Part shown: piece by piece, positions 21,072-34,838 of the stretch
How the letters are laid out: the number at the start of each line of letters is the position of its first letter
Numbering within the stretch: the first letter of the stretch is position 1
From: Pseudomonas sp. R76
GTDB taxonomy: Bacteria > Pseudomonadota > Gammaproteobacteria > Pseudomonadales > Pseudomonadaceae
DNA length: 64,000 nucleotides
Direction of reading: 5' to 3'
NCBI RefSeq assembly: GCF_009834565.1
Contig: NZ_CP019428.1
Coordinates: 3,038,001-3,102,000 of the forward strand
Program-made: the position numbers and the translations under genes
Notes under the pieces: generated by a model
What the model saw: only the letters and a program-made list of their open reading frames with translations
Told to the model about the DNA's origin: nothing
Databases searched by the model: none

Positions 21072-21890
21072 ATGAGCGCCACCGATTGGATCGGCCGAAG
21101 TGAAACCGCCCACGACCACCTGAGCCACAACCTGCTCAAGCGCATCGCCGCGACCTTCGGCGCGGCGGTGCCCGTGGAGGGCGAAGCCGTTCCACCGCTG
21201 TGGCAGTGGTGTTTCTTCCAGGACCCACTGCCGGAATCGGCGCTGGGCACTGACGGCCACCCGGCCCGTGGCGGGTTTCTGCCGCCAGCGGAAAATCGCA
21301 ATCGCATGTGGGCCGGTGGGCGGATCGAGTTCCTGCATGCCTTGCGCGCCGGTGAGGCGGCGACTCGCGTGTCGACCATCACCCACGTCGAAGAAAAAAC
21401 CGGCCGCACCGGCGCGCTGCTGTTTGTCACCGTGCGCCATGACTATTCCCAGGACGGGCGACTGGCGATTCGCGAAGAACAGGACATCGTCTACCGCGAA
21501 CCCACGCCGCCCAAGCCAGGCAGCGGCGACGCACTCGCCGAAGGTGAATGGCGTGAGAGTGTCGACCCCACGCCAACCCTGTTGTTTCGCTACAGCGCCG
21601 TGACCTTCAACGGTCACCGCATCCACTACGACTACCCCTACGTCACCGGCACCGAAGGCTATTCGGGCCTCGTGGTGCATGGGCCGTTGATCGCCACCTT
21701 GAGCCTGCGCGCCTTTTGCCGTGCGCACCCGGGCGCCACCTTGCGCCGTTTCGCCTATCGCGGCGTGCGCCCGTTGATTGCGCCACAGCCATTTACCGTG
21801 GGCGGGCGCGTGACAGCACCCGGCGTGGCCCAGTTGTGGGCGGGCAATGCCGATGGCGTGGCGCAAACAGCCGAACTGCATTTCGACTAA
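21072..21890 (+). CDS. ich: Itaconyl-CoA hydratase (MaoC-like)
   Basis: A 272-residue double hot-dog hydratase of the MaoC/HTD2 type. It is predicted to convert itaconyl-CoA to (S)-citramalyl-CoA, step two of itaconate breakdown. The hydratase motif lies in the second half (YSAVTFNGHRIHYD, then HGPLIATL). The N-terminal part carries the family block GGFLPPAENRNRMWAGGR. I chose the ATG at 21072, with GAGG upstream; the frame continues 26 codons further but without similarity. It is first in the operon ich-acyl-CoA dehydrogenase-prpD-ict-ccl and corresponds to PA0878. Confidence 0.88.
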   Translation: MSATDWIGRSETAHDHLSHNLLKRIAATFGAAVPVEGEAVPPLWQWCFFQDPLPESALGTDGHPARGGFLPPAENRNRMWAGGRIEFLHALRAGEAATRVSTITHVEEKTGRTGALLFVTVRHDYSQDGRLAIREEQDIVYREPTPPKPGSGDALAEGEWRESVDPTPTLLFRYSAVTFNGHRIHYDYPYVTGTEGYSGLVVHGPLIATLSLRAFCRAHPGATLRRFAYRGVRPLIAPQPFTVGGRVTAPGVAQLWAGNADGVAQTAELHFD

Positions 21891-21918
21891 CACCAGAACA
21901 ACAGGCGGAGAGCCGTTA

Positions 21919-23082
21919 ATGAACCCGAATGACAACGAAGAACTCAATGCCATCCGCGAAGGCGTGCGCGCCTTGTGCGCTGAATTCGATGGCGCTTACT
22001 GGCGCAAGGTCGATGAAGAAAAAGGCTTCCCCGAAGCCTTCGTCAAGGCCCTGACCGACGCCGGCTGGTTGTCGGCGATGATTCCCGAAGAATACGGCGG
22101 CTCCGGCCTGGGCCTGGCCGAAGCCTCGGTGATTCTGGAAGAAGTGAACCGTTGCGGCGGCAACTCCGGCACGGTTCACGGCCAGATGTACAACATGTTC
22201 ACACTGCTTCGCCACGGCAGCGAAGCGCAAAAAAGCTTCTACCTGCCCAAGCTCGCCAGCGGCGAATTGCGCCTGCAATCGATGGGCGTCACCGAGCCCA
22301 CCACCGGCACCGATACCACCAAGATCAAGACCACCGCGATTCGGAGCGGCGACAAATACGTGATCAACGGCCAGAAAGTCTGGATCTCGCGGGTGCAGCA
22401 TTCCGACCTGATGATCCTGCTGGCGCGCACCACGCCGCTGGCCGAGGTGAAGAAAAAGTCCGAAGGCATGTCGATTTTCCTGGTGGACCTGCGCGAAGCC
22501 ATCGGCAACGGCCTGACCGTGCAGCCCATCGCCAATATGGTCAACCACGAAACCAACGAGCTGTTTTTCGACAACCTGGAGTTACCCCTCGACAGCCTGA
22601 TTGGCGAGGAGGGCAATGGCTTCAAATATATCCTCGACGGCCTGAATGCCGAGCGCACGCTGATCGCTGCCGAGTGCATCGGCGACGGCCGCTGGTTTAT
22701 CGAAAAGGCCAGCGCCTATGCCCGTGACCGCGTGGTGTTTGGCCGGCCCATCGGGCAGAACCAGGGCGTGCAGTTCCCGATTGCCGAAGCGCACATCGAA
22801 ATCGAAGCGGCGGACCTGATGCGCTGGCGTGCCTGCGAGGAATACGACAGCGGCAAGAGCGCCGGGGCCAGCGCCAATATGGCCAAGTACCTGGCGGCCA
22901 AGGCGTCCTGGGAAGCGGCCAACGCCTGCCTGCAAACCCACGGCGGCTTTGGCTTCGCCTGCGAATACGACGTGGAGCGCAAATTCCGCGAAACGCGCCT
23001 GTACCAAGTGGCGCCGATCTCCACCAACCTGATCCTGTCGTACGTGGCCGAGCATCTGCTCGAACTGCCACGCAGCTTCTGA
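21919..23082 (+). CDS. Acyl-CoA dehydrogenase family protein
   Basis: A 387-residue flavoprotein with the standard acyl-CoA dehydrogenase layout. The N-terminal helical domain contains IPEEYGGSGLG, the middle beta domain contains MGVTEPTTGTDTT and INGQKVWIS, and the C-terminal helical domain ends in QTHGGFGFACEYDVER. The glycine/aromatic context near residue 370 fits the family. I chose the ATG at 21919, with GGAGAG upstream; the longer frame overlaps ich. It corresponds in order to PA0879. Its role in itaconate use is not essential chemistry and may extend the substrate range (e.g. methylsuccinyl-type acids). Confidence 0.85.
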   Translation: MNPNDNEELNAIREGVRALCAEFDGAYWRKVDEEKGFPEAFVKALTDAGWLSAMIPEEYGGSGLGLAEASVILEEVNRCGGNSGTVHGQMYNMFTLLRHGSEAQKSFYLPKLASGELRLQSMGVTEPTTGTDTTKIKTTAIRSGDKYVINGQKVWISRVQHSDLMILLARTTPLAEVKKKSEGMSIFLVDLREAIGNGLTVQPIANMVNHETNELFFDNLELPLDSLIGEEGNGFKYILDGLNAERTLIAAECIGDGRWFIEKASAYARDRVVFGRPIGQNQGVQFPIAEAHIEIEAADLMRWRACEEYDSGKSAGASANMAKYLAAKASWEAANACLQTHGGFGFACEYDVERKFRETRLYQVAPISTNLILSYVAEHLLELPRSF

Positions 23083-23092
23083 GGGCCTGACC

Positions 23093-24442
23093 ATGAGCCA
23101 TACCCACGCCTTGTGTCGGTTCCTTGCCGAGTTGAGCTACGAACAGTTGCCCGACAACGTGCTGGCGCGCACCGAAGACCTGTATCTGGATTGGCTGGCC
23201 TCGGCGCTGGCCAGCAAAGGCGCGCACCCGATTCCACTGTTCGAACGCTACGCGCAAAAGATGGGCCCGAGCACTGGCCCGGCGCAGATCATCGTTAACG
23301 GCGCCAGCAGCAGCGCGTATTTCGCCGCGCTGGTGAACGGCGCCTCGTCCCATCTGGTGGAGCAGGATGACCTGCACAACAGCTCGGTGCTGCACCCGGC
23401 CACGGTGGTGTTTCCCGCCGCCTTGGCCGCCGCGCAAGACCTCGGCAAATCCGGCCGCGAGCTGCTGCTGGCGTCGGTGGCGGGCTACGAGGCCGGGATT
23501 CGCATCGGCGAATTCATGGGGCGTTCGCACTACCGCATCTTTCACACCACGGCGACTGTCGGCACCTTGGCGGCTGCCGTTGCCGTGGGCAAGCTGCTGG
23601 ATTTCAACCAGGAGCAATTCATCAATGTGCTCGGCAGTGCCGGCACTCAGGCTGCAGGGCTGTGGGAATTTTTGCGCGATGCCGCCGATTCCAAGCAGCT
23701 GCACACCGCCAAGGCCGCAGCCGATGGTTTGCTCGCCGCCTACCTGACGGCGGACGGGCTGACCGGCGCGCGCAATATTCTTGAAGGCGACCAGGGTTTG
23801 GCGGCGGGCATGTCCAGCGACGCTGAACCCAGCAAATTGTCCGCTGACCTCGGCACGCGCTGGGCACTGCTGGAAACCTCGTTCAAGTTCCACGCCTCGT
23901 GCCGCCACACCCATCCGGCCGCCGATGCGCTGTTGGAGTTGATGCAGCGCGAAGGGCTGGGCGCCGATCAGATTGCGCGCGTGGAAACCCGTGTGCATCA
24001 GGGCGCCATTGATGTGCTGGGGCGCGTCACCGTGCCTGCCAGCGTGCACCAGGCCAAGTTCTCCATGGGCACCGTGCTCGGCCTGATCGCCGTGCACGGC
24101 AAGGCCGGGCTCACCGAGTTCCACGAACTGGCGCTGAGCGATCCGGCCGTCTCGACGTTTCGCGACAAAGTCAGCATGACCCTCGACCCCGAGGTCGACG
24201 GCGCTTACCCGCAACGCTGGCTGGGCCGCGTCACCGTCACCACGCTCGACGGCCGCACGCTGCACGGCGCCATTGATGAGCCGAAGGGCGACCCGGGCAA
24301 CACCCTGAGCCGTGTGGAGCTGGCAGATAAATTCCAGCGCCTGACCCACTTCAGCGGCGCGCGTACACCGGCACAAGCCAATGCACTGATCGACAAGGTC
24401 TGGAACCTGCGTAACGCGGCGTCCATGGCCCACTGGCTCTGA
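23093..24442 (+). CDS. MmgE/PrpD family protein
   Basis: A 449-residue member of the 2-methylcitrate dehydratase fold: an all-alpha domain with HLVEQDDLHNSSVLHPA, then KFHASCRHTHPAADALLEL. Family members dehydrate methylcitrate, aconitate-like or related tricarboxylic acids, so one acting on a methylated or branched dicarboxylate fits this cluster (PA0881 position). It begins 10 bp after the dehydrogenase stop and ends 9 bp before ict. The exact substrate cannot be read from the sequence. Confidence 0.85.
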   Translation: MSHTHALCRFLAELSYEQLPDNVLARTEDLYLDWLASALASKGAHPIPLFERYAQKMGPSTGPAQIIVNGASSSAYFAALVNGASSHLVEQDDLHNSSVLHPATVVFPAALAAAQDLGKSGRELLLASVAGYEAGIRIGEFMGRSHYRIFHTTATVGTLAAAVAVGKLLDFNQEQFINVLGSAGTQAAGLWEFLRDAADSKQLHTAKAAADGLLAAYLTADGLTGARNILEGDQGLAAGMSSDAEPSKLSADLGTRWALLETSFKFHASCRHTHPAADALLELMQREGLGADQIARVETRVHQGAIDVLGRVTVPASVHQAKFSMGTVLGLIAVHGKAGLTEFHELALSDPAVSTFRDKVSMTLDPEVDGAYPQRWLGRVTVTTLDGRTLHGAIDEPKGDPGNTLSRVELADKFQRLTHFSGARTPAQANALIDKVWNLRNAASMAHWL

Positions 24443-24451
24443 GGAACTGTG

Positions 24452-25645
24452 ATGACTCATCAACGACCGCTGGACGGCATCACCGTTGTCAGCCTGGAAC
24501 ACGCAATTGCCGCGCCATTCTGCACCCGCCAATTGGCCGATTTGGGCGCGCGCGTGATCAAGATCGAACGCCCAGGCGCCGGTGACTTTGCCCGTGGCTA
24601 TGACGAGCGCGTGCGCGGCCTGGCCTCGCATTTTGTGTGGACCAACCGCTCCAAGGAAAGCCTGACCCTGGACCTCAAGCAGGACGAGGCGGGCGACATT
24701 CTCGACAGCTTGCTGGCCGACGCCGACGTGCTGGTGCAAAACCTCGCACCCGGTGCGGCGGCGCGCATGGGCTTGTCGTTCGAGGCGCTGCAGGAGCGTT
24801 TCCCACGGCTGATCGTCTGCGATATTTCCGGCTATGGCGAAGGCGGGCCTTACGAGAAGAAGAAGGCCTATGACTTGCTGATCCAGAGCGAGGGCGGCTT
24901 TTTGTCGGTGACCGGTGGCCCCGGTGACGACCAGATGGCCAAGGCCGGTTGCTCCATCGCCGATATCTCGGCGGGCATGTACGCCTACAGCGGCATCCTC
25001 TCGGCACTGCTGCTGCGCGGCAAGACCGGGAAGGGCAGCCGCATCGATGTGAGCATGCTCGAAAGCCTGGTGGAGTGGATGGGCTACCCGATGTACTACG
25101 CGTTCGACGGCGCGCCTCAGCCACCGCGCGCTGGGGCGGCGCATTCGACGATTTACCCGTACGGGCCGTTTCCCACCGGCGACGGCAGCACGGTGATGCT
25201 CGGTTTGCAGAACGAGCGCGAATGGGCGGCGTTCTGCGACAAGGTGCTGCTCACGCCTGAGCTTGCGACCGATGAGCGTTTCTCGGCCAACTTCAAGCGT
25301 TCGGCCAACCGCGAGGTGCTGCGCCAGATCATCGTCGACAGCTTTGCGCAGCTGGACGCCGAGGCGGTGATTCAGCGCTTGGAAGACGCGCAAATCGCCA
25401 GTGCGCGCGTCAATGACATGCAGGGAGTGTGGGACCACCCGCAGCTCAAGGCGCGCGACAGCTGGCGTGAAGTCCAGAGCCCGGCCGGGCCGTTGCCGTC
25501 GCTGCTGCCACCGGCGCGCAATGCCGCGTTCACGCCGCGAATGGACGCTGTGCCCGCGCTGGGGCAGCACAGCATGAGCATTCTCGACCGGCTCGGCTAC
25601 TCGGCCGATGCCATCGACAGCCTGCGCGCGCGCGGCGTTATCTAA
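24452..25645 (+). CDS. ict: Itaconate CoA-transferase (CaiB/BaiF, class III)
   Basis: A 397-residue class III CoA-transferase, predicted to move CoA from succinyl-CoA to itaconate. The N-terminal block is LDGITVVSLEHAIAAPFCTRQLADLGA. The catalytic aspartate lies in CSIADISAGMYAYSG near residue 169. The family blocks RSKESLTLDLK and SFAQLDAEAV are also present. I used the ATG at 24452; a GTG immediately before is in frame. It is fourth in the operon and matches PA0882 by order and type. Confidence 0.88.
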   Translation: MTHQRPLDGITVVSLEHAIAAPFCTRQLADLGARVIKIERPGAGDFARGYDERVRGLASHFVWTNRSKESLTLDLKQDEAGDILDSLLADADVLVQNLAPGAAARMGLSFEALQERFPRLIVCDISGYGEGGPYEKKKAYDLLIQSEGGFLSVTGGPGDDQMAKAGCSIADISAGMYAYSGILSALLLRGKTGKGSRIDVSMLESLVEWMGYPMYYAFDGAPQPPRAGAAHSTIYPYGPFPTGDGSTVMLGLQNEREWAAFCDKVLLTPELATDERFSANFKRSANREVLRQIIVDSFAQLDAEAVIQRLEDAQIASARVNDMQGVWDHPQLKARDSWREVQSPAGPLPSLLPPARNAAFTPRMDAVPALGQHSMSILDRLGYSADAIDSLRARGVI

Positions 25646-25660
25646 TAAGGAATTTACCTG

Positions 25661-26476
25661 ATGCCAAAGCCTTTAGTGCGTTCGGCCTTGTTTGTACCGG
25701 GCAGCCGCCCGGAGCGGTTTTCCAAGGCGTTGGCCAGTGGCGCCGATGCGGTGATTGTGGATTTTGAAGACGCGGTGGAAGAGCCGCTCAAGCGTCAGGC
25801 GCGAGACAACCTCGGCGCGTTTCTTAACGAGCATCCCGAGGCTCAGGTGTGGGTGCGCATCAACGCACCGGAACATGCCGAGCACTTTGAAGATGTGGCG
25901 TTCTGCAAGGCCCACGCCAACGTGGCCGGTGTGCTGTTGCCGAAGGTGGAAAGCGCGGCCCAGGTCGCCGTGGTGGCTGCTACCGGCAAACTGATCTGGC
26001 CGATCATCGAAAGCGCGCGGGGTTTGTTGGCAGTCGCCGAAATCGCCCATGCGCCGCAGGTGGAACGCCTGTCGTTTGGCGGCCTGGACCTGGCGCTGGA
26101 CTTGAACCTGAGCAGCAACTCGCCTGCTGCGCAGTTCGCCCTCGACCAGGCACGCCTGGCGTTGATCGTGCACTCGCGCGCTGCGGGTCTGGTCGCGCCG
26201 CTGGATGGCGTGCACCCGGCAATCGATGACCCTGAAGGGTTGCGGCGTTCGATCCGGCACGCCTACGAGATGGGCTTTGCCGGTGCGCTGTGTATCCATC
26301 CCAAGCAGGTGGCGGTGATACATGCGGCACTGGCGCCGAGCGCCGATGATTTGGCCTGGGCCAAGCGCGTGGTGGAGGCTGGGGCACATGGGGCAGGGGC
26401 GTATCAGATTGATGGGCAGATGGTGGATGCGCCGGTGCTGCTGCGGGCGCAGAGGTTGCTCGCCGCCCAGCTCTAA
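25661..26476 (+). CDS. ccl: (S)-Citramalyl-CoA lyase (HpcH/HpaI, CitE-like)
   Basis: A 271-residue TIM-barrel lyase, predicted to split citramalyl-CoA into pyruvate and acetyl-CoA, the last step of itaconate degradation. The family N-terminus RSALFVPGSRPERFSKALASGAD and the metal-binding VIVDFEDAVEE near residue 30 are clear, as are LLPKVESAAQ and CIHPKQVAVIH. A ribosome site (AAGGAA) precedes the ATG. It ends the first itaconate operon; a REP pair follows. Confidence 0.88.
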   Translation: MPKPLVRSALFVPGSRPERFSKALASGADAVIVDFEDAVEEPLKRQARDNLGAFLNEHPEAQVWVRINAPEHAEHFEDVAFCKAHANVAGVLLPKVESAAQVAVVAATGKLIWPIIESARGLLAVAEIAHAPQVERLSFGGLDLALDLNLSSNSPAAQFALDQARLALIVHSRAAGLVAPLDGVHPAIDDPEGLRRSIRHAYEMGFAGALCIHPKQVAVIHAALAPSADDLAWAKRVVEAGAHGAGAYQIDGQMVDAPVLLRAQRLLAAQL

Positions 26477-26499
26477 CTGACCAAAACCGAATCAAAAAT

Positions 26500-26589
26500 T
26501 GTGGGAGCTGGCTTGCCTGCGATAGCGGTGGCTCAGCTAACAAATTGACTGCCTGACACACCGCTATCGCAGGCAAGCCAGCTCCCACA
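26500..26589. repeat. REP doublet (REPIN)
   Basis: REP pair directly after ccl and 26 bp before the second operator palindrome. It marks the boundary between the catabolic and transport transcription units. Confidence 0.9.
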
Positions 26590-26615
26590 GGGGATCACTG
26601 GCGTTGATGAGATCG

Positions 26616-26636
26616 GCGTTCACCCACACCGAACGC
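26616..26636. promoter_or_regulatory. Probable LysR operator upstream of dctP
   Basis: GCGTTC-N9-GAACGC again, with the same TCG before and GGT plus AAATTC after as in the copy before ich (20966-20986). It lies 83 bp upstream of the dctP start, almost the same distance as in the ich copy (86 bp). This indicates a separate promoter for the TRAP genes under the same regulator. Confidence 0.75.
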
Positions 26637-26712
26637 AGGTATCTAAAATTCGAAATTCACTACACGCGTGACATCAGGCACCTTGCCCTACAACACAACA
26701 ATAAGAAGGTGA

Positions 26713-27702
<990 letters not shown>

Positions 27703-27740
27703 TTGGGCGACCACCCAAAGCTACTGTGGAAAGGGCTTTA

Positions 27741-27828
27741 TGTGGGAGCTGGCTTGCCTGCGATGCAGGCAACTCGGTGTATCTGTAGCACCGAGTTGAT
27801 CCCATCGCGGGCAAGCCCGGCTCCCACA
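27741..27828. repeat. REP doublet inside the dctPQM operon
   Basis: Inverted REP arms lie between dctP and dctQ. Such a structure can protect the upstream dctP message and lower expression of the downstream membrane genes; that effect is inferred from known REP behaviour. Confidence 0.88.
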
Positions 27829-27895
27829 GTGGTCCGCTTCCACAGTTTGCTCCGCTCTCCACCCCGACATCATTCCCGCTTCGCGAGGTTTTGCC

Positions 27896-28528
27896 ATGCA
27901 AACGCTAAGGCGCGTCTGGGAGCACCTGGAGGAAGGGTTTATCGCCTTCCTGCTGGCCGCCATGACCCTGGTGACATTCGTCTACGTCATGCTCAACAAC
28001 ATCTACACGCTGTTCTTTGCCTTGTCCGACAAGTGGGCGTGGAGCAGCCAATTCTTCGGCGCCCTGGGCGACCACACCATGACCTGGGCCCAGGACATGA
28101 CCTGGAGCGTGGCGCTGACCAAGGCCATGTTCGGCTGGCTGATTTTCTTCGGCATTTCCTATGGCGTGCGCACCGCCGGCCACCTCGGCGTGGACGCGCT
28201 GGTCAAGCTGACCAAACGCCCGGTGCAGCGCCTGCTCGGCATGCTTGCGTGCCTGTGCTGCCTGGCGTACGCCGGGCTGTTCATGGTCGCCAGCTACAAG
28301 TGGGTCAGCGCGGTGATGACCGCCCACATCGGCGCCGAAGACCTCGACCAATACGGCGTGGACGTGGGCGATATCGTGATCATCGTGCCCATCGGTTTCG
28401 CCCTGGTGTTTATCCGCTACCTGGAAATTTTCTACCGCATCTTTACCCACCGTCAGGTCGGGTTGGGCCTGGCCGACGAGGCCGGTGAGGCCAGCAAGTT
28501 GGCCGGCAGCCATGAGGAGCGTCACTGA
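27896..28528 (+). CDS. dctQ: TRAP transporter small permease (DctQ family)
   Basis: A 210-residue protein with four hydrophobic segments (near 18-40, 75-95, 110-130 and 155-175) in the DctQ arrangement. It contains the family block FFGISYGVRTAGHLGVDALV. It is the small membrane subunit that joins the binding protein to the large permease. The stop overlaps the start of dctM by one base. It corresponds to PA0885. Confidence 0.85.
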   Translation: MQTLRRVWEHLEEGFIAFLLAAMTLVTFVYVMLNNIYTLFFALSDKWAWSSQFFGALGDHTMTWAQDMTWSVALTKAMFGWLIFFGISYGVRTAGHLGVDALVKLTKRPVQRLLGMLACLCCLAYAGLFMVASYKWVSAVMTAHIGAEDLDQYGVDVGDIVIIVPIGFALVFIRYLEIFYRIFTHRQVGLGLADEAGEASKLAGSHEERH

Positions 28529-29808
28529 TGGCCGTGCTCTGTCTGTTTTTGCTGTTGTTCGTGTTCATGTTCCTCGGCGTGCCGATTGCGATTTCCCTCG
28601 GGTTGTCCGGCGCGGTGTCGATCCTGATGTTCAGCCAGGACTCGGTGAGTTCGCTGGCGATCAAGCTGTTTGAAACCTCCGACGCCTACACCTTCCTGGC
28701 GATTCCGTTCTTCCTGCTCTCCGGCGCGTTCATGACCACCGGCGGCGTGGCGCAACGGCTGATCGACTTCGCCAACGCCTGTGTCGGCCACATCCGTGGT
28801 GGCCTGGCGATTGCGGCGGTGTTGGCGTGCATGCTGTTTGCGGCGCTGTCCGGCTCATCGCCAGCGACGGTGGCAGCGGTGGGTTCGATTGCGGTGGCGG
28901 GCATGGTGCGTTCCGGTTACCCGAAGGAATTCGGCGCCGGCATCATCTGCAACGCCGGCACCTTGGGCATCCTGATCCCGCCGTCGATTGTGATGGTAGT
29001 GTACTCGGCGGCCACGGAAACTTCGGTGGGCAAGCTGTTTATGGCCGGGGTGATTCCTGGGTTGCTGTTGGGCCTGATGCTGATGGTCGCGATCTACATC
29101 GTCGCGCGCATCAAAAAGCTGCCGGCGCAGCCACGCGCGACCTTTCGCGAATGGCTGACCTGCGCGCGCCGTGCCTTCTGGGGCTTGCTGTTGCTGGTGA
29201 TCATCCTCGGCGGCATCTACAGCGGCATGTTCACGCCGACGGAAGCAGCGGCGGTGGCGGCGGTGTACTCGGCGTTCGTGGCTTTGTTCGTTTACAAGGA
29301 CATGAAACTGCGTGACTGCCCCAAGGTGCTGCTGGAGTCCGGACGCCTGGCGATCATGCTGATGTTTATCATCGCCAACGCCATGCTGTTTGCCCACGTG
29401 CTGACCACCGAACAAATCCCGCAGGAAATCACCGCCTGGGTGATCTCCGAAGGCCTCACGCCGATTGGCTTTTTGATCATGGTCAACATCGTGTTGCTGG
29501 TGGCGGGCAGCTTCATGGAGCCGTCGGCCATCGTGCTGATCCTGGCGCCGATCTTCTTCCCGATCGCGATGAAGCTGGGCATTGACCCGATTCACTTGGG
29601 GATTGTGATGGTGGTCAATATGGAAATCGGCCTGGTGCACCCGCCGGTGGGGTTGAACCTGTTCGTGACCTCGGCGGTGACCGGTTTGACGCTGGGGCAG
29701 ACCATCCGCGCGGCGTTGCCGTGGCTGATGATCCTGCTGGTGTTCCTGATTATGGTGACTTACTTGCCGTTTATCTCGCTGGCGTTGCCGCACTGGCTGG
29801 GGATGTAA
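28528..29808 (+). CDS. dctM: TRAP transporter large permease (DctM family)
   Basis: A 426-residue membrane protein of the DctM/elevator type, with about 12 hydrophobic segments and the family blocks FFLLSGAFMTTGGVAQRL, LSGSSPATVAAVGSIA and EIGLVHPPVGLNLFVTSAV. It catalyses sodium-driven uptake together with dctP and dctQ. It overlaps dctQ by one base. It ends the itaconate cluster, and the terpene synthase gene converges on it with a 12-bp gap and no clear terminator. Confidence 0.88.
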   Translation: MAVLCLFLLLFVFMFLGVPIAISLGLSGAVSILMFSQDSVSSLAIKLFETSDAYTFLAIPFFLLSGAFMTTGGVAQRLIDFANACVGHIRGGLAIAAVLACMLFAALSGSSPATVAAVGSIAVAGMVRSGYPKEFGAGIICNAGTLGILIPPSIVMVVYSAATETSVGKLFMAGVIPGLLLGLMLMVAIYIVARIKKLPAQPRATFREWLTCARRAFWGLLLLVIILGGIYSGMFTPTEAAAVAAVYSAFVALFVYKDMKLRDCPKVLLESGRLAIMLMFIIANAMLFAHVLTTEQIPQEITAWVISEGLTPIGFLIMVNIVLLVAGSFMEPSAIVLILAPIFFPIAMKLGIDPIHLGIVMVVNMEIGLVHPPVGLNLFVTSAVTGLTLGQTIRAALPWLMILLVFLIMVTYLPFISLALPHWLGM

Positions 29809-29820
29809 AGGCAGCGCTGA

Positions 29821-31521
29821 TTACTCGCCCTTGAAGCGTATTTCTCGATAGCGCGGCACTGCCAGGTGCCAGGCGATGTTGCCGCGCCATAGATCATGCA
29901 GGGCTTGGGCGCAGATCATCGCTTGCTCCTGAGCCCGCTCTTCATAGCCCAGCGCTGCCAGGCGCTCGGGCAGCGCGGCCTGAGCCCGTGCGAACTGTGT
30001 GGCCCACTGGTCGATGCGTTGCGACACTTGGCTCGCGGCTTGCGCCGCGCCAAGGCCTTGGGTGTGCCTCAGGTGAGTGAGCAGGTTGTAGATGTCTTCA
30101 TCAGGGTTTTCCATGATCCGAAACGACAGCAAGTCGTTGACGGCCTTCAGCAAGTTCAAGGCCAGGCTGCGCAGTTCCTGCCAGGGTTGGCTGTAGTAAA
30201 GTGCCGACGATAATTGGATGTTTTGCACCAGGTAGATGAACTCGAGACAGACTTGAAAACCGCCAGCGTTTTGCCAGAGCGTTTCATAACCTTCCACACC
30301 CGGCTGTGTGTGGTTGATGCGGTGCATCAACGCGGTAGTAGAGGGCGTCAGGTACGTTGAGTATTGCTCGCCAACGCGCTGTTTCCAGAGTGGCGGCATC
30401 AGGCGCGACGCGCGCCGGATGATATCTGCCAGCGCACGCGCCAAGGGCTCTCGGTTGGTGGTGTCGCCTGTGAAGGCAGTGGTGTAAACGCCCCGAATCA
30501 AGCGTTCAAGGGTTTCGGGATTATTGCAGTCTTCGTCAGCAAGGTCGTCCTGGCAACTGAACCATCCCACCAGGTCGGAAAGAATGAGCAGTATCTCAAG
30601 GGGGGCAGCACTCCACATGTAACCGGCGTATTTACCCGGAACGTATATGTCCAATCGGCGGGTGGTTTCGGGGCTGTCTTCCAACCCCATGGACTTGAGC
30701 CATTGACGCGTGTGCTGTTGGACCTGATCCGTAAAGGGGCTCAGCGGGTACGTGGCTGTTTCAAGCCAGCGGGGTAAATGGAAGGGAGCAACCGACGGCG
30801 GGGTGCTATGCGGCGATGAGGGTGAGGGCGCGTGCTCCGGTGTACCTGCCCACTTGGCTATCTCATTTAACCCGTAATGCTCGATCAGTGTGCGAAACCA
30901 AATCGTGAAGGTATCGGGTGCGTTCTCCAGCTCATCCTGCAAGTCGAGAGGGTGTACCCAACGCCAGGCCTTGGCTTCATCAGGGGCAGGATTGGGTGCT
31001 GCGTCACTGATACCCACGAAGACATGATCGTATTCGTACTCCATCAACGCTTGCGACACCTGTGCTTGGTAGGTGAATGTAAAGCGCTCGACCAATTCAC
31101 AAGCCAGCCCCATCTCTTCCATCAGTCGACGTTTTGCCGCATCCAGCGTCTTCTCGCCCAGTCGTGGATGCCCGCAGCAGGTATTACTCCACAGTCCAGG
31201 GGAGTGGTACTTGCCGTCCGCTCTTTGTTGCAGAAGTACACGAGCCTCCCGGTCGAACAAGAAGATAGAGAACGCACGGTGCAACAAGTTTTTTTGGTGC
31301 GCGCGCAGTTTTCCGGCAGTGCCTATCTGCTGATCATTAAGGTCAACGAGTATGAGTAGATCTTCCATTGTGCAGTCATCGGGCAGGGCTGTGAGATAAC
31401 TTATAGTGCTGAATGGGGCGGCAAGCTTATTTTTTTTACAGGGATTTGCAGCGAAGGGCTTATGCCTTTTGTTTTTTATATCGGGGATTTTAATTTCGTT
31501 AAAGTTTGTTGGTGTACTCAT
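29821..31521 (-). CDS. IPP isomerase-terpene synthase fusion protein
   Basis: One frame encodes two enzymes. Residues about 52-225 are a Nudix-type isopentenyl diphosphate isomerase, with active-site cysteine in NTCCGHPRLGE (115-116) and the acidic motif EYEYDHVF (161-168). A Pro/Ser-rich linker (about 230-250) leads to a class I terpene synthase (about 250-566). This part has the Asp-rich motif DDLADE at 325-330, an NSE-like motif NDLLSFRIME at 462-471 (the final Glu one residue later than usual) and a C-terminal R-Y pair. The start is uncertain: ATG 31521 (566 residues) or ATG 31368 (515 residues, exactly at the isomerase domain); neither has a good ribosome site. The 5' part is AT-rich. 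The product terpene cannot be predicted. Confidence 0.85.
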   Translation of the reverse strand: MSTPTNFNEIKIPDIKNKRHKPFAANPCKKNKLAAPFSTISYLTALPDDCTMEDLLILVDLNDQQIGTAGKLRAHQKNLLHRAFSIFLFDREARVLLQQRADGKYHSPGLWSNTCCGHPRLGEKTLDAAKRRLMEEMGLACELVERFTFTYQAQVSQALMEYEYDHVFVGISDAAPNPAPDEAKAWRWVHPLDLQDELENAPDTFTIWFRTLIEHYGLNEIAKWAGTPEHAPSPSSPHSTPPSVAPFHLPRWLETATYPLSPFTDQVQQHTRQWLKSMGLEDSPETTRRLDIYVPGKYAGYMWSAAPLEILLILSDLVGWFSCQDDLADEDCNNPETLERLIRGVYTTAFTGDTTNREPLARALADIIRRASRLMPPLWKQRVGEQYSTYLTPSTTALMHRINHTQPGVEGYETLWQNAGGFQVCLEFIYLVQNIQLSSALYYSQPWQELRSLALNLLKAVNDLLSFRIMENPDEDIYNLLTHLRHTQGLGAAQAASQVSQRIDQWATQFARAQAALPERLAALGYEERAQEQAMICAQALHDLWRGNIAWHLAVPRYREIRFKGE

Positions 31522-31668
31522 AACATTGCTAGCGTTGAGTGAGTAGCAATGTTGCCCACGCAAAGCAGTGGCCTGTGTTGTGTTGATGGTCTTTTACGCG
31601 TGAAGAAAACACTGTGTAAAAAGTGAGAATGGACGCTCTCATACCTTTCAGCCAACGAGGTCGTGAAG
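31522..31668. promoter_or_regulatory. Divergent promoter region of the terpenoid gene pair
   Basis: AT-rich gap of 147 bp between the fusion gene and the prenyl synthase, which start in opposite directions. It presumably holds both promoters. I see no operator palindrome I can defend. AACGAGG ahead of the ATG at 31669 is the ribosome site that sets the prenyl synthase start. Confidence 0.5.
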
Positions 31669-32616
31669 ATGGTCAATTCCTGCTTGTCATTTGATAATGC
31701 CTGGTACTTGGGTGCCAAAGCCCAGTGGTCTGAGCCTTTCATGTATCAAGAACGCACACCTGGAAAGCTCGTGCGAACGGAGCTTGCGTGGGCGCTCTGC
31801 GCGCTATACGGCGTGCCTTGCGCTCAAACCCACGTGCTGTGCGCTGCCATAGAGCGAATGAACCTGTCTTCATTGATTCATGACGACCTGCTCGACGGGG
31901 ACAGTTTGCGCCGAGGCATTCCAACGGTGTGGAAGCAATATGGCCCGGAAGTTGCGCTGGTCTCAGGCATGTACGGTTACTTGGACGGGCTGAGAATGCT
32001 CGCTGAGTTAAATGATATGAATATTGTCCGCGCCGGCATAGAGAGTCTTGAGTGCCTGCATGTGGGTCAGTACTTGGATGCTCAAGTAAGTGCCGGTGAA
32101 ACGTTGCCCTCCCTGGAAGAGTATGGCTGCATCGCTCAAGCCAATACGGGTTGTTTTTTCATGTTTTTATTAAATGCCTGTCAGTGTTTAAGGGCGCTGG
32201 ATGTTGACACCTATAGCTTACTTAAGTCGATGATGAACCTGTTGGGTGTCTATTATCGCTACGTCAATGATTACTGCGATATTAATCATATCCCTCATTT
32301 TGAGAAGAAAAGCTTTGCAATGGATCTGGAAGGGGGCCCAAAGTCATTTCTAATGATCCTGGCTAACAGGCCATTGGTGAAGGGCGCGTTAACGGCGGAT
32401 CAGAAAAGACAAATTATTCAGGACTTCGGTGAGGCCGGTGTATTTGACGCCGCCCTGGCGCTGATGGAGGCAACCTACGCACAGCTTCTCAGTTACTTGG
32501 AGGCTGTGAGGCAGTGCAAGGGTGCGGTCAATATCAATATGCTGGAGGTGTTTTTAAGTACCCTGCATTTCCAGCCTGGCCCGGATGACAATTACTACAA
32601 GCGCGTGCTCGCTTAA
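31669..32616 (+). CDS. Prenyl diphosphate synthase with eukaryote-like second half
   Basis: A 315-residue trans-prenyltransferase. The substrate lysine/arginine block (PGKLVR, 31-36), the first Asp motif HDDLLDGDSLRRG (71-83) and GQYLD (133-137) are standard. The second motif is altered: YYRYVNDYCD (195-204) has Asn200 where the first Asp of D-D-x-x-D is expected. The following KKSFAMDLEGGPKSF resembles the KGF-x-DL-x-EGKFSF of eukaryotic GGPP synthases more than bacterial IspA. The aromatic pair before the second motif, rather than the first, is unusual for bacterial FPP synthase. It is divergent from the isomerase-terpene synthase and probably makes its substrate (C15 or C20). Local GC is low, consistent with acquisition. 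Confidence 0.8.
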   Translation: MVNSCLSFDNAWYLGAKAQWSEPFMYQERTPGKLVRTELAWALCALYGVPCAQTHVLCAAIERMNLSSLIHDDLLDGDSLRRGIPTVWKQYGPEVALVSGMYGYLDGLRMLAELNDMNIVRAGIESLECLHVGQYLDAQVSAGETLPSLEEYGCIAQANTGCFFMFLLNACQCLRALDVDTYSLLKSMMNLLGVYYRYVNDYCDINHIPHFEKKSFAMDLEGGPKSFLMILANRPLVKGALTADQKRQIIQDFGEAGVFDAALALMEATYAQLLSYLEAVRQCKGAVNINMLEVFLSTLHFQPGPDDNYYKRVLA

Positions 32617-32665: not shown

Positions 32666-33820
32666 TTAGTGATCCATCGCACTCAAGATCGCATGCGCCA
32701 CCTTGACCCGTTCAGCATTCGGGTAATTCTTGTTCGCCAACATCACCACGCCGATGTCCTTGCTCGGCACGTACACCACGTACGCGCCAAAACCGCCGGT
32801 TGAGCCGGTTTTGTTGTACAGCACGTTCGCCGGTTGCGGCTGGGCCGGTGTCAGCCAAGTGACCTTGTGCGGCTCCATTGCCATCGGCGTGGAGTTGCCC
32901 TCCAGCAGGGCTTGCAGCGTGATCGGGTAAGGGTAGCGTTCCCAACCCAGGCCTTGGGTCATGCCGTTCACGGTGTAGTAACCCGCGTGGGTGGTGGCAA
33001 TCGCCTGCTGCAGCGGTTTTTCCAGGGTTTGCGGGTGCATGTTCACCATTACGTAGTGGGCCATGTCCTGGGCGCTGGTCTTGATGCCATAGGCTTCGCT
33101 GTCGAGTGCACCGGGGCTGACGCGGATGGGCTTCAAGTTCTTGTCATAGCCCTGGGCGTACAGGCTGGATTTGTCGGCGGGCACGCTGACGTGGGTGTTG
33201 GTCAAGCCCAGCTTGGGCAGCAGGGTTTTCTCCATGGCCACGTTGAACGGTTGGCCAAGGCTTTGCGCCGACAGGTAGCCGAACAGCCCGATGCTCGGGT
33301 TGGAATACAAACGTTGTGTACCTGGCGTGTAAGTCGGCTTCCAATGCTGGAAGTAGCCGAGCATGGTCTCAGGGCTGTCGGCCGCGTCCGGGAACTGCAG
33401 GGGCAGGCCGCCGGGGGTGTAGGTCGCCAGTTGCACCAGGCTGATCTTGTCGAAAGCGCTGCCGGCCAACGCGGGCAGGTGCTGGCTGGCGATGTCCGAG
33501 AGCTTGAGCTTGCCGGTCGCCTGGGCATAGCCGCCGAGGGTGGCGGTGAAGGTTTTGCTCACCGAGCCGATCTCGAACAGGGTGTTTTCGCTGACCGGTT
33601 GCTGGGTTTCTTTTGACGCCGTGCCGTAGTTAAAGTAATGCACCTTGCCGTTCTGAACCACGGCGACCGCCAGGCCCGGAATCGCCTGCTGTTGCATCAA
33701 CGGTTTTACGCTGGCGTCTACCACGGCTTGCAGGTCTGTGGCCGCCAGGCAGTTGCCGGCTGCCAGCAATACAGCCAGGGCGTTTAAATTACGCACTCCA
33801 AACAGAGAAAGTTGGGGCAT
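32666..33820 (-). CDS. ampC: Class C beta-lactamase
   Basis: A 384-residue periplasmic serine beta-lactamase with a signal peptide (ALAVLLAAGNCLAA). All three class C motifs are intact: S-V-S-K in FEIGSVSKTFTA, Y-S-N in RLYSNPSIGL and K-T-G in VLYNKTGSTGGFG. It is divergent from ampR, the classic inducible arrangement. The gene ends 49 bp from the convergent prenyl synthase. Confidence 0.93.
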   Translation of the reverse strand: MPQLSLFGVRNLNALAVLLAAGNCLAATDLQAVVDASVKPLMQQQAIPGLAVAVVQNGKVHYFNYGTASKETQQPVSENTLFEIGSVSKTFTATLGGYAQATGKLKLSDIASQHLPALAGSAFDKISLVQLATYTPGGLPLQFPDAADSPETMLGYFQHWKPTYTPGTQRLYSNPSIGLFGYLSAQSLGQPFNVAMEKTLLPKLGLTNTHVSVPADKSSLYAQGYDKNLKPIRVSPGALDSEAYGIKTSAQDMAHYVMVNMHPQTLEKPLQQAIATTHAGYYTVNGMTQGLGWERYPYPITLQALLEGNSTPMAMEPHKVTWLTPAQPQPANVLYNKTGSTGGFGAYVVYVPSKDIGVVMLANKNYPNAERVKVAHAILSAMDH

Positions 33821-33947
33821 GATGTCGCTTCCATGAGGTGATCGATTAAATAGATAGCCTGCGCAGGCGGGGCAAATGTAGGCAGTTTGCCGGCCGCGAT
33901 CAAACGATCATATCTTGCACCAGCCATTAGATAAATTAGGGTCAAGC

Positions 33948-34838
33948 ATGCTGCGTTCCCATCTGCCGCTCAATGCCTTGCGCGCGTTCGAGGCGTCGGC
34001 CCGCCACTTGAGCTTTACCCGCGCCGCGATTGAGCTGTGCGTGACCCAGGCGGCGGTCAGCCATCAGGTCAAGAGCCTGGAAGCACAACTCAATGTCACC
34101 TTGTTCAAGCGCTTGCCACGCGGCTTGATGCTCACCAGTGAGGGCGAGACCTTGCTGCCGGTGGTGCGCGAATCGTTTGACCGCATTGCCCAGACGCTCA
34201 ACCAGTTTGAAGGTGGGCATTATCGCGAAGTGCTTACCGTGGGCGCGGTGGGCACCTTTACCGTGGGTTGGCTGCTGCCGCGCCTGCCGGACTTTCAGGC
34301 GCGCTACCCGTTTATCGACCTGCGCCTGTCCACCCACAACAACCGCGTCGACGTAGCCGCCGAAGGCCTGGATTACGCGATCCGTTTCGGCGCTGGAGCC
34401 TGGCACGGCACCGACGCCTGCGAGCTGCTCGCAGCGCCGCTGACCGTGCTGTGTACGCCCACGCTGGCCGAGCAATTGCGCACGCCGGCCGACCTGTTGA
34501 AGCACACGCTGCTGCGCTCCTACCGCGCCGATGAGTGGACCCAATGGTTCCAGGCCGCAGGCCTGCCCGCCGACACCGTCGTGCCGCGCAGCATTGTGTT
34601 CGATTCGTCACTGGCAATGATGGAGGCGGCGCAGCAAGGCATCGGCGTGGCATTGGCCCCGGCGATGATGTTCTGGCGGCAATTGGCGACGGACGTGATT
34701 CGCCAGCCGTTCGATATCGGCATTACCACCGGCAGTTATTGGCTGACGCGCTTGCAGTCGCGGGCGGAGACTTCGGCGATGCTGGCGTTCAAGGGCTGGC
34801 TGGAGGAATTGTCGGCAGCGCATCGAAAGCTGTCCTAA
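33948..34838 (+). CDS. ampR: LysR-family beta-lactamase regulator
   Basis: A 296-residue LysR regulator, near-identical in its first 200 residues to the remembered P. aeruginosa AmpR pattern (LPLNALRAFEASARHLSFTRAA, GHYREVLTVGAVGTFTVGWLLPRL). AmpR represses or activates ampC depending on UDP-MurNAc-pentapeptide versus anhydro-muropeptides. I chose the ATG at 33948; the frame extends 11 codons upstream without similarity. The 127-bp ampC-ampR gap should hold its operator. Confidence 0.92.
   Translation: MLRSHLPLNALRAFEASARHLSFTRAAIELCVTQAAVSHQVKSLEAQLNVTLFKRLPRGLMLTSEGETLLPVVRESFDRIAQTLNQFEGGHYREVLTVGAVGTFTVGWLLPRLPDFQARYPFIDLRLSTHNNRVDVAAEGLDYAIRFGAGAWHGTDACELLAAPLTVLCTPTLAEQLRTPADLLKHTLLRSYRADEWTQWFQAAGLPADTVVPRSIVFDSSLAMMEAAQQGIGVALAPAMMFWRQLATDVIRQPFDIGITTGSYWLTRLQSRAETSAMLAFKGWLEELSAAHRKLS

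What the first reader, a model, noticed from the sequence alone, without database searches (positions are those of the whole stretch)
29821..31521. IPP isomerase fused to a class I terpene synthase
One frame encodes a full Nudix isomerase (CCGHP and EYEYDHVF motifs) and, after a Pro/Ser linker, a terpene synthase with DDLADE, an NSE-like motif and a C-terminal R-Y pair. I do not recall this domain order as a standard fusion. It would couple the IPP/DMAPP balance to terpene formation in one polypeptide.
Basis: partly seen in the sequence, partly recalled or inferred. Interest (0 to 1): 0.88.

Follow-up and report, generated by a model that had tools for sequence, protein, structure and literature searches.

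The report
Isomerase–terpene synthase fusion in Pseudomonas
A Pseudomonas bacterium carries a real natural fusion of an isoprenoid-building-block isomerase with a terpene-making enzyme, beside a prenyl-synthase-like gene whose active site is altered in a way that hints at unusual terpene chemistry.

Summary
An intact minus-strand ORF (29821-31521; probable start 31368) encodes a complete type I IPP isomerase (IDI) joined by a disordered linker to a class I terpene synthase (TPS). It is no artefact: 13 other database clusters and six other sampled Pseudomonas genomes have it. The locus is TPS plus a divergent polyprenyl-synthase homologue (IDS). In relatives idi is fused, separate just upstream, or absent; fusion was gained or lost repeatedly, also in an unrelated TPS family. 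The partner IDS has five substrate-site changes (four in 15 of 15, one in 14) that 57 other bacterial prenyl synthases lack, but for three sharing one; two match chrysanthemyl diphosphate synthase, a DMAPP+DMAPP enzyme. The fused IDI is the genome's only IDI above cut-off. A bacterial irregular-terpene pathway is possible but unproven; five relatives, one with a truncated locus, have no IDI above cut-off.

The parts
29821..31521 (-). IDI-TPS fusion ORF, 566 aa from the first ATG; probable real start Met52 at 31368 (515 aa)
30874..31368 (-). Type I IPP isomerase domain, residues 52-216; residues recalled as catalytic in E. coli IDI (here His75, His81, Cys116, His118, Glu136, Tyr151, Glu161, Glu163, Trp208) present
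   Evidence: 14 of 14 fused proteins at each residue, 13 of 14 for Trp208
30757..30873 (-). Pro/Ser-rich linker, about residues 217-255; low model confidence at 229-242
   Evidence: higher dN/dS than the domains
29821..30756 (-). Class I terpene synthase domain (PF19086), residues 256-566
30532..30549 (-). Aspartate-rich motif DDLADE (residues 325-330)
   Evidence: D325 43 of 45, D326 39 of 45, D329 45 of 45
30274..30276 (-). Trp416 at the diphosphate-sensor position, 46 residues before the NSE motif, where Arg is usual; the next residue is Gln here, Arg in 27 of 45
   Evidence: Trp in 45 of 45; position rule
30112..30138 (-). Modified NSE motif N462-D-L-L-S466-F-R-I-M470; Met/Leu replaces the metal-binding Glu
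   Evidence: N and S 45 of 45; M 42 and L 3 at position 470; Glu at 471 in 39 of 45
29848..29853 (-). C-terminal RY pair (residues 557-558)
31369..31662 (.). Divergent intergenic region between the two genes, G+C 0.44 against 0.61 for the window
   Evidence: promoter-like matches no more than in shuffles
31663..32616 (+). Polyprenyl-synthase homologue (PF00348), 317 aa, non-canonical active site
31861..31863 (+). Asn67 where ordinary synthases have the IPP-site His (role recalled)
   Evidence: Asn 14 of 15; His in all 58 background rows
31882..31896 (+). First aspartate-rich motif DDLLD, retained
32143..32145 (+). Asn161 where ordinary synthases have the Lys of the KT motif
   Evidence: Asn 15 of 15; Lys in all 58 background rows
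32254..32280 (+). Second aspartate-rich region YRYVNDYCD: Tyr198 (usual Phe), Arg199 (usual Gln), Asn202 (usual Asp)
   Evidence: each 15 of 15; of 58 background rows Phe 53, Gln 58, Asp 58

Best explanation
This is a two-gene terpene locus of Pseudomonas. One gene encodes a bifunctional enzyme. Its N-terminal type I IDI interconverts IPP and DMAPP, and its C-terminal class I TPS ionises an allylic diphosphate and releases a terpene. The fusion arose from a neighbouring idi-tps gene pair and has been gained or lost several times, which suggests that the benefit is co-expression and a raised DMAPP supply rather than obligate channelling. The divergent gene encodes a trans-prenyl-synthase relative that keeps its allylic (first Asp-rich) site but has lost several residues of the usual IPP, diphosphate and second-metal sites, so it probably does not perform, or does not only perform, ordinary head-to-tail chain elongation. 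Shown here: the fusion, conservation of both domains, the locus, its variants and the altered residues. Inferred: both activities, the order of the steps, and the reason for the extra DMAPP. Unknown: substrate length and product.
For: Domains, motifs and fold. Residues recalled as catalytic in IDI kept in 14 of 14 fused family-A proteins, 13 of 14 at one Trp. dN/dS against L038: IDI 0.10, TPS 0.08, IDS 0.09 (dS 1.6-2.0, so rough); closer pairs L040/L042 and L040/L043 give 0.11-0.25. TPS and divergent IDS occur together in all 16 loci examined (15 contigs: L034 and L048 are one), and no other ORF of 90 aa or more is shared by more than 9 of them apart from a frame antisense to the genes counted. 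IDI states: fused (window, L032, L038-L040, L042, L043), separate upstream gene (L034/L048, L035), absent (L033, L041, L044-L047). L034 has an ATGA idi/tps overlap. L033 keeps linker-like sequence without IDI, which suggests loss of the domain. A second TPS family shows both fused and split states. In the own genome type II IDI matches stay below cut-off and type I has one hit above cut-off, this one.
Against: Five genomes with the same TPS and IDS have no type I IDI above cut-off anywhere, so IDI is helpful at most; one of them (G304, L046) has lost the 5' ends of both genes. G016 has the fusion and a second, separate IDI. The TPS departs from consensus at the diphosphate sensor and the NSE glutamate in every member, so full activity cannot be assumed. 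In P. putida, adding E. coli idi on top of dxs did not raise lycopene significantly (PMC6734295, passages). No expression or product data.
Confidence: 0.6

Rival explanations
1. Ordinary regular pathway: despite its substitutions the divergent enzyme makes GPP, FPP or GGPP head to tail, the TPS cyclises that product, and IDI only balances IPP and DMAPP, as proposed for idi genes of gibberellin operons.
For: The first Asp-rich motif, RRG and the last Lys are kept in 15 of 15, the Arg of GKxxR in 14 of 15. Closest solved relatives are human GGPP synthase and fungal prenyltransferase domains. In gibberellin operons idi is presumed to balance IPP and DMAPP and was lost from many rhizobial operons (PMC7273348, passages).
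Against: Five concerted changes at IPP-site, diphosphate and metal positions; of these only Phe to Tyr occurs in the background (3 of 58 rows). The Lys of GKxxR is also replaced in 5 of 15 (4 Met, 1 in the truncated L046).
Confidence: 0.35
2. Irregular pathway: the divergent enzyme joins DMAPP to DMAPP, or to another allylic diphosphate, in a non-head-to-tail manner; the fused IDI supplies DMAPP; the unusual TPS turns the irregular diphosphate into the product.
For: Two of four substitutions reported for plant chrysanthemyl diphosphate synthase, Phe to Tyr four residues before, and Asp to Asn at, the first Asp of the second motif (PMC3518182, section 3 and passages), are in 15 of 15 partner enzymes. 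The IPP-site His is Asn in 14 of 15. IDI is the obvious DMAPP source in a genome with no other IDI above cut-off. The TPS is itself atypical.
Against: The region IV Thr-to-Gly change of that enzyme is absent: Thr is kept in 15 of 15. In mealybug transIDS5 the same Asp-to-Asn change abolished irregular activity (PMC10960109, passages). Relatives keep the locus without IDI. Sequence alone cannot show the reaction.
Confidence: 0.22
3. The divergent enzyme has lost coupling altogether and acts as a prenyl-synthase-derived terpene synthase or as a non-catalytic partner subunit; the TPS then works on host FPP.
For: Loss of coupling, mostly with ND-type second motifs, is reported for fungal IDS-like terpene synthases (PMC7484799, passages).
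Against: Most of those fungal enzymes have NDxxSxxxD/E, and one Arg is named as key to coupling; here the motif is NDxxD and the Arg of GKxxR, which I take as the equivalent, is kept in 14 of 15. The first Asp-rich motif is fully kept.
Confidence: 0.2
4. The TPS domain is catalytically degenerate and only the IDI works.
For: Sensor Arg and NSE Glu are replaced in 45 of 45.
Against: Low dN/dS and invariant Asp329, Asn462, Ser466 and RY residues. Natural variants at these motifs can be active: SmTS1 lacks the sensor and has altered Asp-rich and NSE motifs, though it keeps the NSE Glu (PMC8450962, passages).
Confidence: 0.1
5. The fusion is a frameshift or assembly artefact.
For: None found.
Against: Found in six other sampled genomes, two of one contig, and in 13 other protein clusters.
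Confidence: 0.01

Closest known systems
Type I (Nudix) isopentenyl-diphosphate isomerase, TIGR02150 / NF002995
   Same: Above the curated scores; catalytic residues present
   Different: Continues through a linker into a terpene synthase; the NCBIfam models are 159 and 185 positions long
Bacterial class I terpene synthases; nearest solved relatives 1,8-cineole synthase of Streptomyces clavuligerus (5nx6/5nx7) and T-muurolol synthase
   Same: Fold, Asp-rich motif, Asn and Ser of the NSE motif, RY pair
   Different: About 25% identity; Trp for the sensor Arg, Met/Leu for the NSE Glu, N-terminal IDI. Far below the cut-off of each product-specific NCBIfam TPS model that matched
Trans-prenyl diphosphate synthases (PF00348), human GGPP synthase type
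   Same: Fold and first Asp-rich motif
   Different: Asn for His, Asn for Lys, Tyr for Phe, Arg for Gln, Asn for Asp at substrate and metal positions
Plant chrysanthemyl diphosphate synthase (PMC3518182)
   Same: Phe-to-Tyr and first-Asp-to-Asn changes in the second Asp-rich region
   Different: Region IV Thr is kept; lineage differs (plant FPP synthase against a GGPP-synthase-like bacterial protein); no product data
idi genes within terpene operons, e.g. gibberellin operons (PMC7273348, passages)
   Same: idi beside terpene genes, often lost; fusions of neighbouring operon genes occur there too (cyp114-fd, fd-sdr)
   Different: In the passages seen idi is a separate gene and the fusions involve other genes
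'Unknown terpene 1' of Pseudomonas Ps655: TPS beside a polyprenyl synthetase (PMC8719888, passage)
   Same: Same two-gene composition; possibly the same locus
   Different: Described in that passage without an IDI domain; identity with this locus not tested

Membership tests
Type I IPP isomerase | Score above NCBIfam equivalog cut-off | tested here: met
   164.1 bits against 127 (NF002995) and 127.4 against 105.8 (TIGR02150)
Type I IPP isomerase | Catalytic Cys, Glu pair, metal His and Glu, active-site Tyr and Trp (E. coli residues recalled) | tested here: met
   14 of 14 fused family-A proteins, 13 of 14 for the Trp
Type I IPP isomerase | IPP/DMAPP isomerisation | not testable with these tools
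   needs enzyme assay
Class I terpene synthase | Pfam PF19086 above cut-off and alpha fold | tested here: met
   73.7 bits against 23.7; Foldseek E 4e-13
Class I terpene synthase | DDxx(x)D motif | tested here: met
   DDLADE in the window; D325 43 of 45, D326 39 of 45, D329 45 of 45
Class I terpene synthase | NSE triad ND(L,I,V)xSxx(K,R)E | tested here: not met
   Asn and Ser kept 45 of 45; Glu position is Met/Leu in 45 of 45; a Glu one place later in 39 of 45. Natural variants at these motifs can be active, so it is filed here by fold and profile, not by this motif
Class I terpene synthase | Diphosphate-sensor Arg 46 residues before the NSE triad | tested here: not met
   Trp in 45 of 45; Arg one place later in 27 of 45, Gln in the window; SmTS1 lacks the sensor and is active
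Head-to-tail trans-prenyl diphosphate synthase | First Asp-rich motif | tested here: met
   15 of 15 at both Asp positions scored
Head-to-tail trans-prenyl diphosphate synthase | Second Asp-rich motif DDxxD/N | tested here: not met
   NDxxD in 15 of 15; Asp in all 58 background rows. 2,865 of 3,040 fungal enzymes have DDxxD/N (PMC7484799, passages)
Head-to-tail trans-prenyl diphosphate synthase | IPP-site His and Lys of the KT motif (roles recalled) | tested here: not met
   Asn in 14 of 15 and Asn in 15 of 15 against His and Lys in all 58 background rows
Chrysanthemyl diphosphate synthase | First Asp of second motif to Asn, and Phe to Tyr four residues before | tested here: met
   15 of 15 each, after PMC3518182
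Chrysanthemyl diphosphate synthase | Thr to Gly in region IV | tested here: not met
   Thr 15 of 15
Chrysanthemyl diphosphate synthase | C-terminal Arg to Gly | not tested
   C-termini not compared
Fungal IDS-like terpene synthase | NDxxSxxxD/E and loss of the Arg equivalent to R81 | tested here: not met
   NDxxD in 15 of 15; Arg kept in 14 of 15, the other (L046) lacks its N-terminus

The most novel reading that the evidence does not exclude
The locus is a bacterial irregular-terpene pathway built on trans-prenyl-synthase folds: the fused IDI turns MEP-derived IPP into DMAPP, the divergent enzyme joins DMAPP units without using IPP as nucleophile, by substitutions partly convergent with plant chrysanthemyl diphosphate synthase, and the atypical TPS domain processes the irregular diphosphate. 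Selection for DMAPP would explain why IDI is repeatedly joined to this synthase.
Probability: 0.2. Interest if true: 0.88.

Novelty: new variant of a known kind. Interest (0 to 1): 0.6.

Why it matters
A natural IDI-TPS polypeptide would be a ready-made part for terpene engineering and a test of whether precursor balance is usefully tied to a cyclase. The fused, split and IDI-less relatives form a natural experiment for asking what a fusion buys. The partner enzyme's consistent loss of IPP-site residues gives a precise, cheap test for irregular coupling in bacteria outside the cis-prenyltransferase fold.

Tried and rejected
Artefact or frameshift: rejected. Plasmid or phage origin: no record covers 80% of the fusion among plasmids or phages. 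A longer conserved gene cluster with tailoring enzymes: only TPS and IDS are shared by all 16 loci among ORFs of 90 aa or more; smaller genes were not looked at. Promoter-like and terminator-like matches were no more than in shuffles. Relatives outside Pseudomonas: in 398 phylum genomes no further match spanned both domains; the IDS had no match at E<=1e-30 in 368 other class genomes. 'Ordinary GGPP synthase' was my first guess and was weakened.

Full report
What is there. The minus-strand frame 29821-31521 has no internal stop and encodes 566 residues. Pfam finds NUDIX at 80-208 and Terpene_syn_C_2 at 316-506, both well above cut-off; NCBIfam assigns the first part to IPP isomerase equivalogs. 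AlphaFold on a 51-sequence alignment gives mean pLDDT 84.8, with residues 1-52, 229-242 and the last five below 50, and Foldseek lists both class I terpene synthases and type I IPP isomerases for the model. Twelve of the 13 other fused proteins of this family start at the equivalent of Met52; P0002 starts 20 residues earlier. The protein is therefore probably 515 aa, starting at 31368; I saw no clear ribosome-binding site at either ATG (sequence).

Surroundings. The window is a Pseudomonas chromosome by its relatives' names; the genome has 6.83 Mb in 2 contigs. A 317-aa PF00348 protein is encoded divergently at 31663-32616. G+C is 0.571 for the fusion from Met52, 0.439 for the gap and 0.505 for the prenyl-synthase gene against 0.609 for the window. 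On one side lies a row of acyl-CoA dehydrogenase, MmgE/PrpD, CoA-transferase, lyase and TRAP transporter genes, on the other a class C beta-lactamase gene and a LysR regulator. I examined 16 loci of the family (15 contigs, since L034 and L048 are one): all 16 have TPS and the divergent synthase; the next most widespread real neighbour, the beta-lactamase gene, is in 9 (ORFs of 90 aa or more; the loci were picked by their TPS match).

Distribution. In a genus sample 53 of 398 genomes matched at E<=1e-10; at most three candidates per genome were scored. By my count of the listed rows, 32 match in the IDI region alone, 8 belong to a second IDI-TPS family, and 13 carry the window's TPS family: seven fused (G000, G373, G337, G031, G352, G084, G016), one with a separate upstream idi (G375) and five without IDI at the locus (G164, G301, G233, G304, G230). 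In those five, 0 of 5 have an IDI above the TIGR02150 cut-off anywhere in the genome, against 5 of 5 controls with idi (G000, G375, G352, G373, G337). G304's copy (L046) has lost the 5' ends of both genes. G016 has the fusion and also a separate IDI. In the protein database 19 of the 120 listed hits (239 found) carry both PF00293 and PF19086: 13 of the window's family and 6 of the second. In 398 genomes of the phylum no further match spanned both domains.

History. On a quick TPS tree the fused proteins of family A lie in two separate starred groups (the window's wider group of 36 rows, and P0020/L040/L042/L043), with split and IDI-less members between and among them; for the label 'fused' against all other rows, starred branches force at least five changes (two partial rows marked 'fused?' counted as others). 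On an IDI tree the IDI domains of both groups and of the second TPS family fall in one starred group of 46 rows, interleaved with stand-alone IDIs. In L034 the idi stop and tps start overlap as ATGA. L033 lacks IDI but its TPS keeps a linker-like N-terminus, pointing to loss; its genome was not searched for another IDI. The second family has separate neighbouring idi and tps in L024 and L053 and fused ones elsewhere. The picture is an idi-tps gene pair that fuses, and loses idi, repeatedly. Counts of changes alone do not tell gain from loss.

Function of the two halves. The IDI residues recalled as catalytic are kept in 14 of 14 fused family-A proteins (one Trp in 13 of 14). dN/dS of the window against L038 is 0.10 (IDI), 0.08 (TPS), 0.09 (partner) and 0.16 (linker), but dS there is 1.6 to 2.9 and in several other pairs saturated; the closer pairs L040/L042 and L040/L043 give 0.11-0.25 for IDI, TPS and partner. 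The own genome has no type II IDI above cut-off and no other type I IDI above cut-off. The TPS keeps the Asp-rich motif, the Asn and Ser of NSE and the RY pair, but Trp416 stands 46 residues before the NSE motif where the diphosphate-sensor Arg is usual, and Met or Leu replaces the NSE Glu, in 45 of 45 family members; a Glu one residue later is present in 39 of 45, and an Arg one residue after the Trp in 27 of 45 (Gln in the window) (rules from PMC8450962, passages). A one-residue shift of both positions is thus possible in many members but not all. The same paper describes an active natural TPS without sensor Arg and with altered metal motifs, though it keeps the NSE Glu, so these changes flag an unusual active site and do not show inactivity.

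The partner enzyme. Sequence and fold place it near human GGPP synthase and fungal prenyltransferase domains (model pLDDT 77.7 from five sequences). The 15 family members have Asn for the IPP-site His (14 of 15), Asn for the Lys of KT (15), Tyr for Phe (15; 3 of 58 rows in background), Arg for Gln (15) and Asn for the first Asp of the second motif (15), while the first motif, RRG, the Thr and the last Lys are kept in 15 of 15; the Lys of GKxxR is kept in 10 of 15. Residue roles other than those cited from papers are recalled. The background is made mostly of best-scoring matches and thus of housekeeping enzymes; it is not a sample of unusual prenyl synthases. The prenyl synthase beside the second TPS family (L049/L126) is ordinary at these sites except Leu for Phe. 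The chrysanthemyl diphosphate synthase paper reports Phe to Tyr and Asp to Asn at the corresponding places, plus Thr to Gly and Arg to Gly (PMC3518182, section 3 and passages). A counter-example is mealybug transIDS5, where Asp to Asn abolished irregular activity (PMC10960109, passages).

Reading. The fusion is real, conserved and recurrent; that the locus makes a terpene is inferred. Whether by regular or irregular coupling is open. I favour a locus in which extra DMAPP matters, but the IDI-less relatives show that IDI is not indispensable.

Print record. The listings of searches for an IDI-TPS fusion or a bacterial irregular pathway of this kind (lists cut at 20 of 44, 20 of 28, 15 of 16 and 12 of 35) showed no description in the held open-access library; subscription papers are not covered. 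The eLife pan-genome paper mentions a Pseudomonas TPS beside a polyprenyl synthetase (PMC8719888, one passage), which may be this locus. Further papers of which passages were searched without bearing on the conclusion: PMC12723471, PMC7839719, PMC10509563, PMC4872519, PMC10881772.

Noticed in passing
L049, L050, L052, L054-L056; P0046-P0048, P0050, P0052, P0054: A second, unrelated Pseudomonas TPS family with canonical NSE motif is also fused to IDI; in L024 and L053 its idi and tps are separate neighbours.
   Followed up: partly
P0057, P0067, P0074, P0075 and others; L057: IDI fused to a squalene/phytoene-synthase domain (PF00494): IDI first in the ones named Pseudomonas; IDI last in many other proteins of the hit list (P0057).
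   Followed up: partly
P0063, P0065, P0076: Database proteins that join IDI to a polyprenyl synthase, to DXP synthase, and to PF02401 (recalled as the IspH family), suggesting IDI is a frequent fusion partner (P0076 only).
   Followed up: partly
L046 8655-10345: TPS and IDS reading frames both lack their 5' ends and overlap; the divergent promoter region seems deleted, so this copy is probably dead.
   Followed up: partly
L035 8727-9748: TPS lies in two overlapping reading frames, a broken copy or sequencing error; idi separate upstream.
   Followed up: no
window 32666-34838: Class C beta-lactamase gene (NF033085, 566.5 bits, cut-off 415) divergent from a LysR regulator whose best NCBIfam match is PenR, below cut-off (389 against 625), next to the terpene locus. 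Looks like a chromosomal ampC-ampR type pair; described only.
   Followed up: no
window 21847-29808: Row of genes for acyl-CoA dehydrogenase, MmgE/PrpD, family III CoA-transferase, HpcH/HpaI-type lyase and a TRAP transporter (DctP, DctQ, DctM), likely uptake and breakdown of an organic acid.
   Followed up: no
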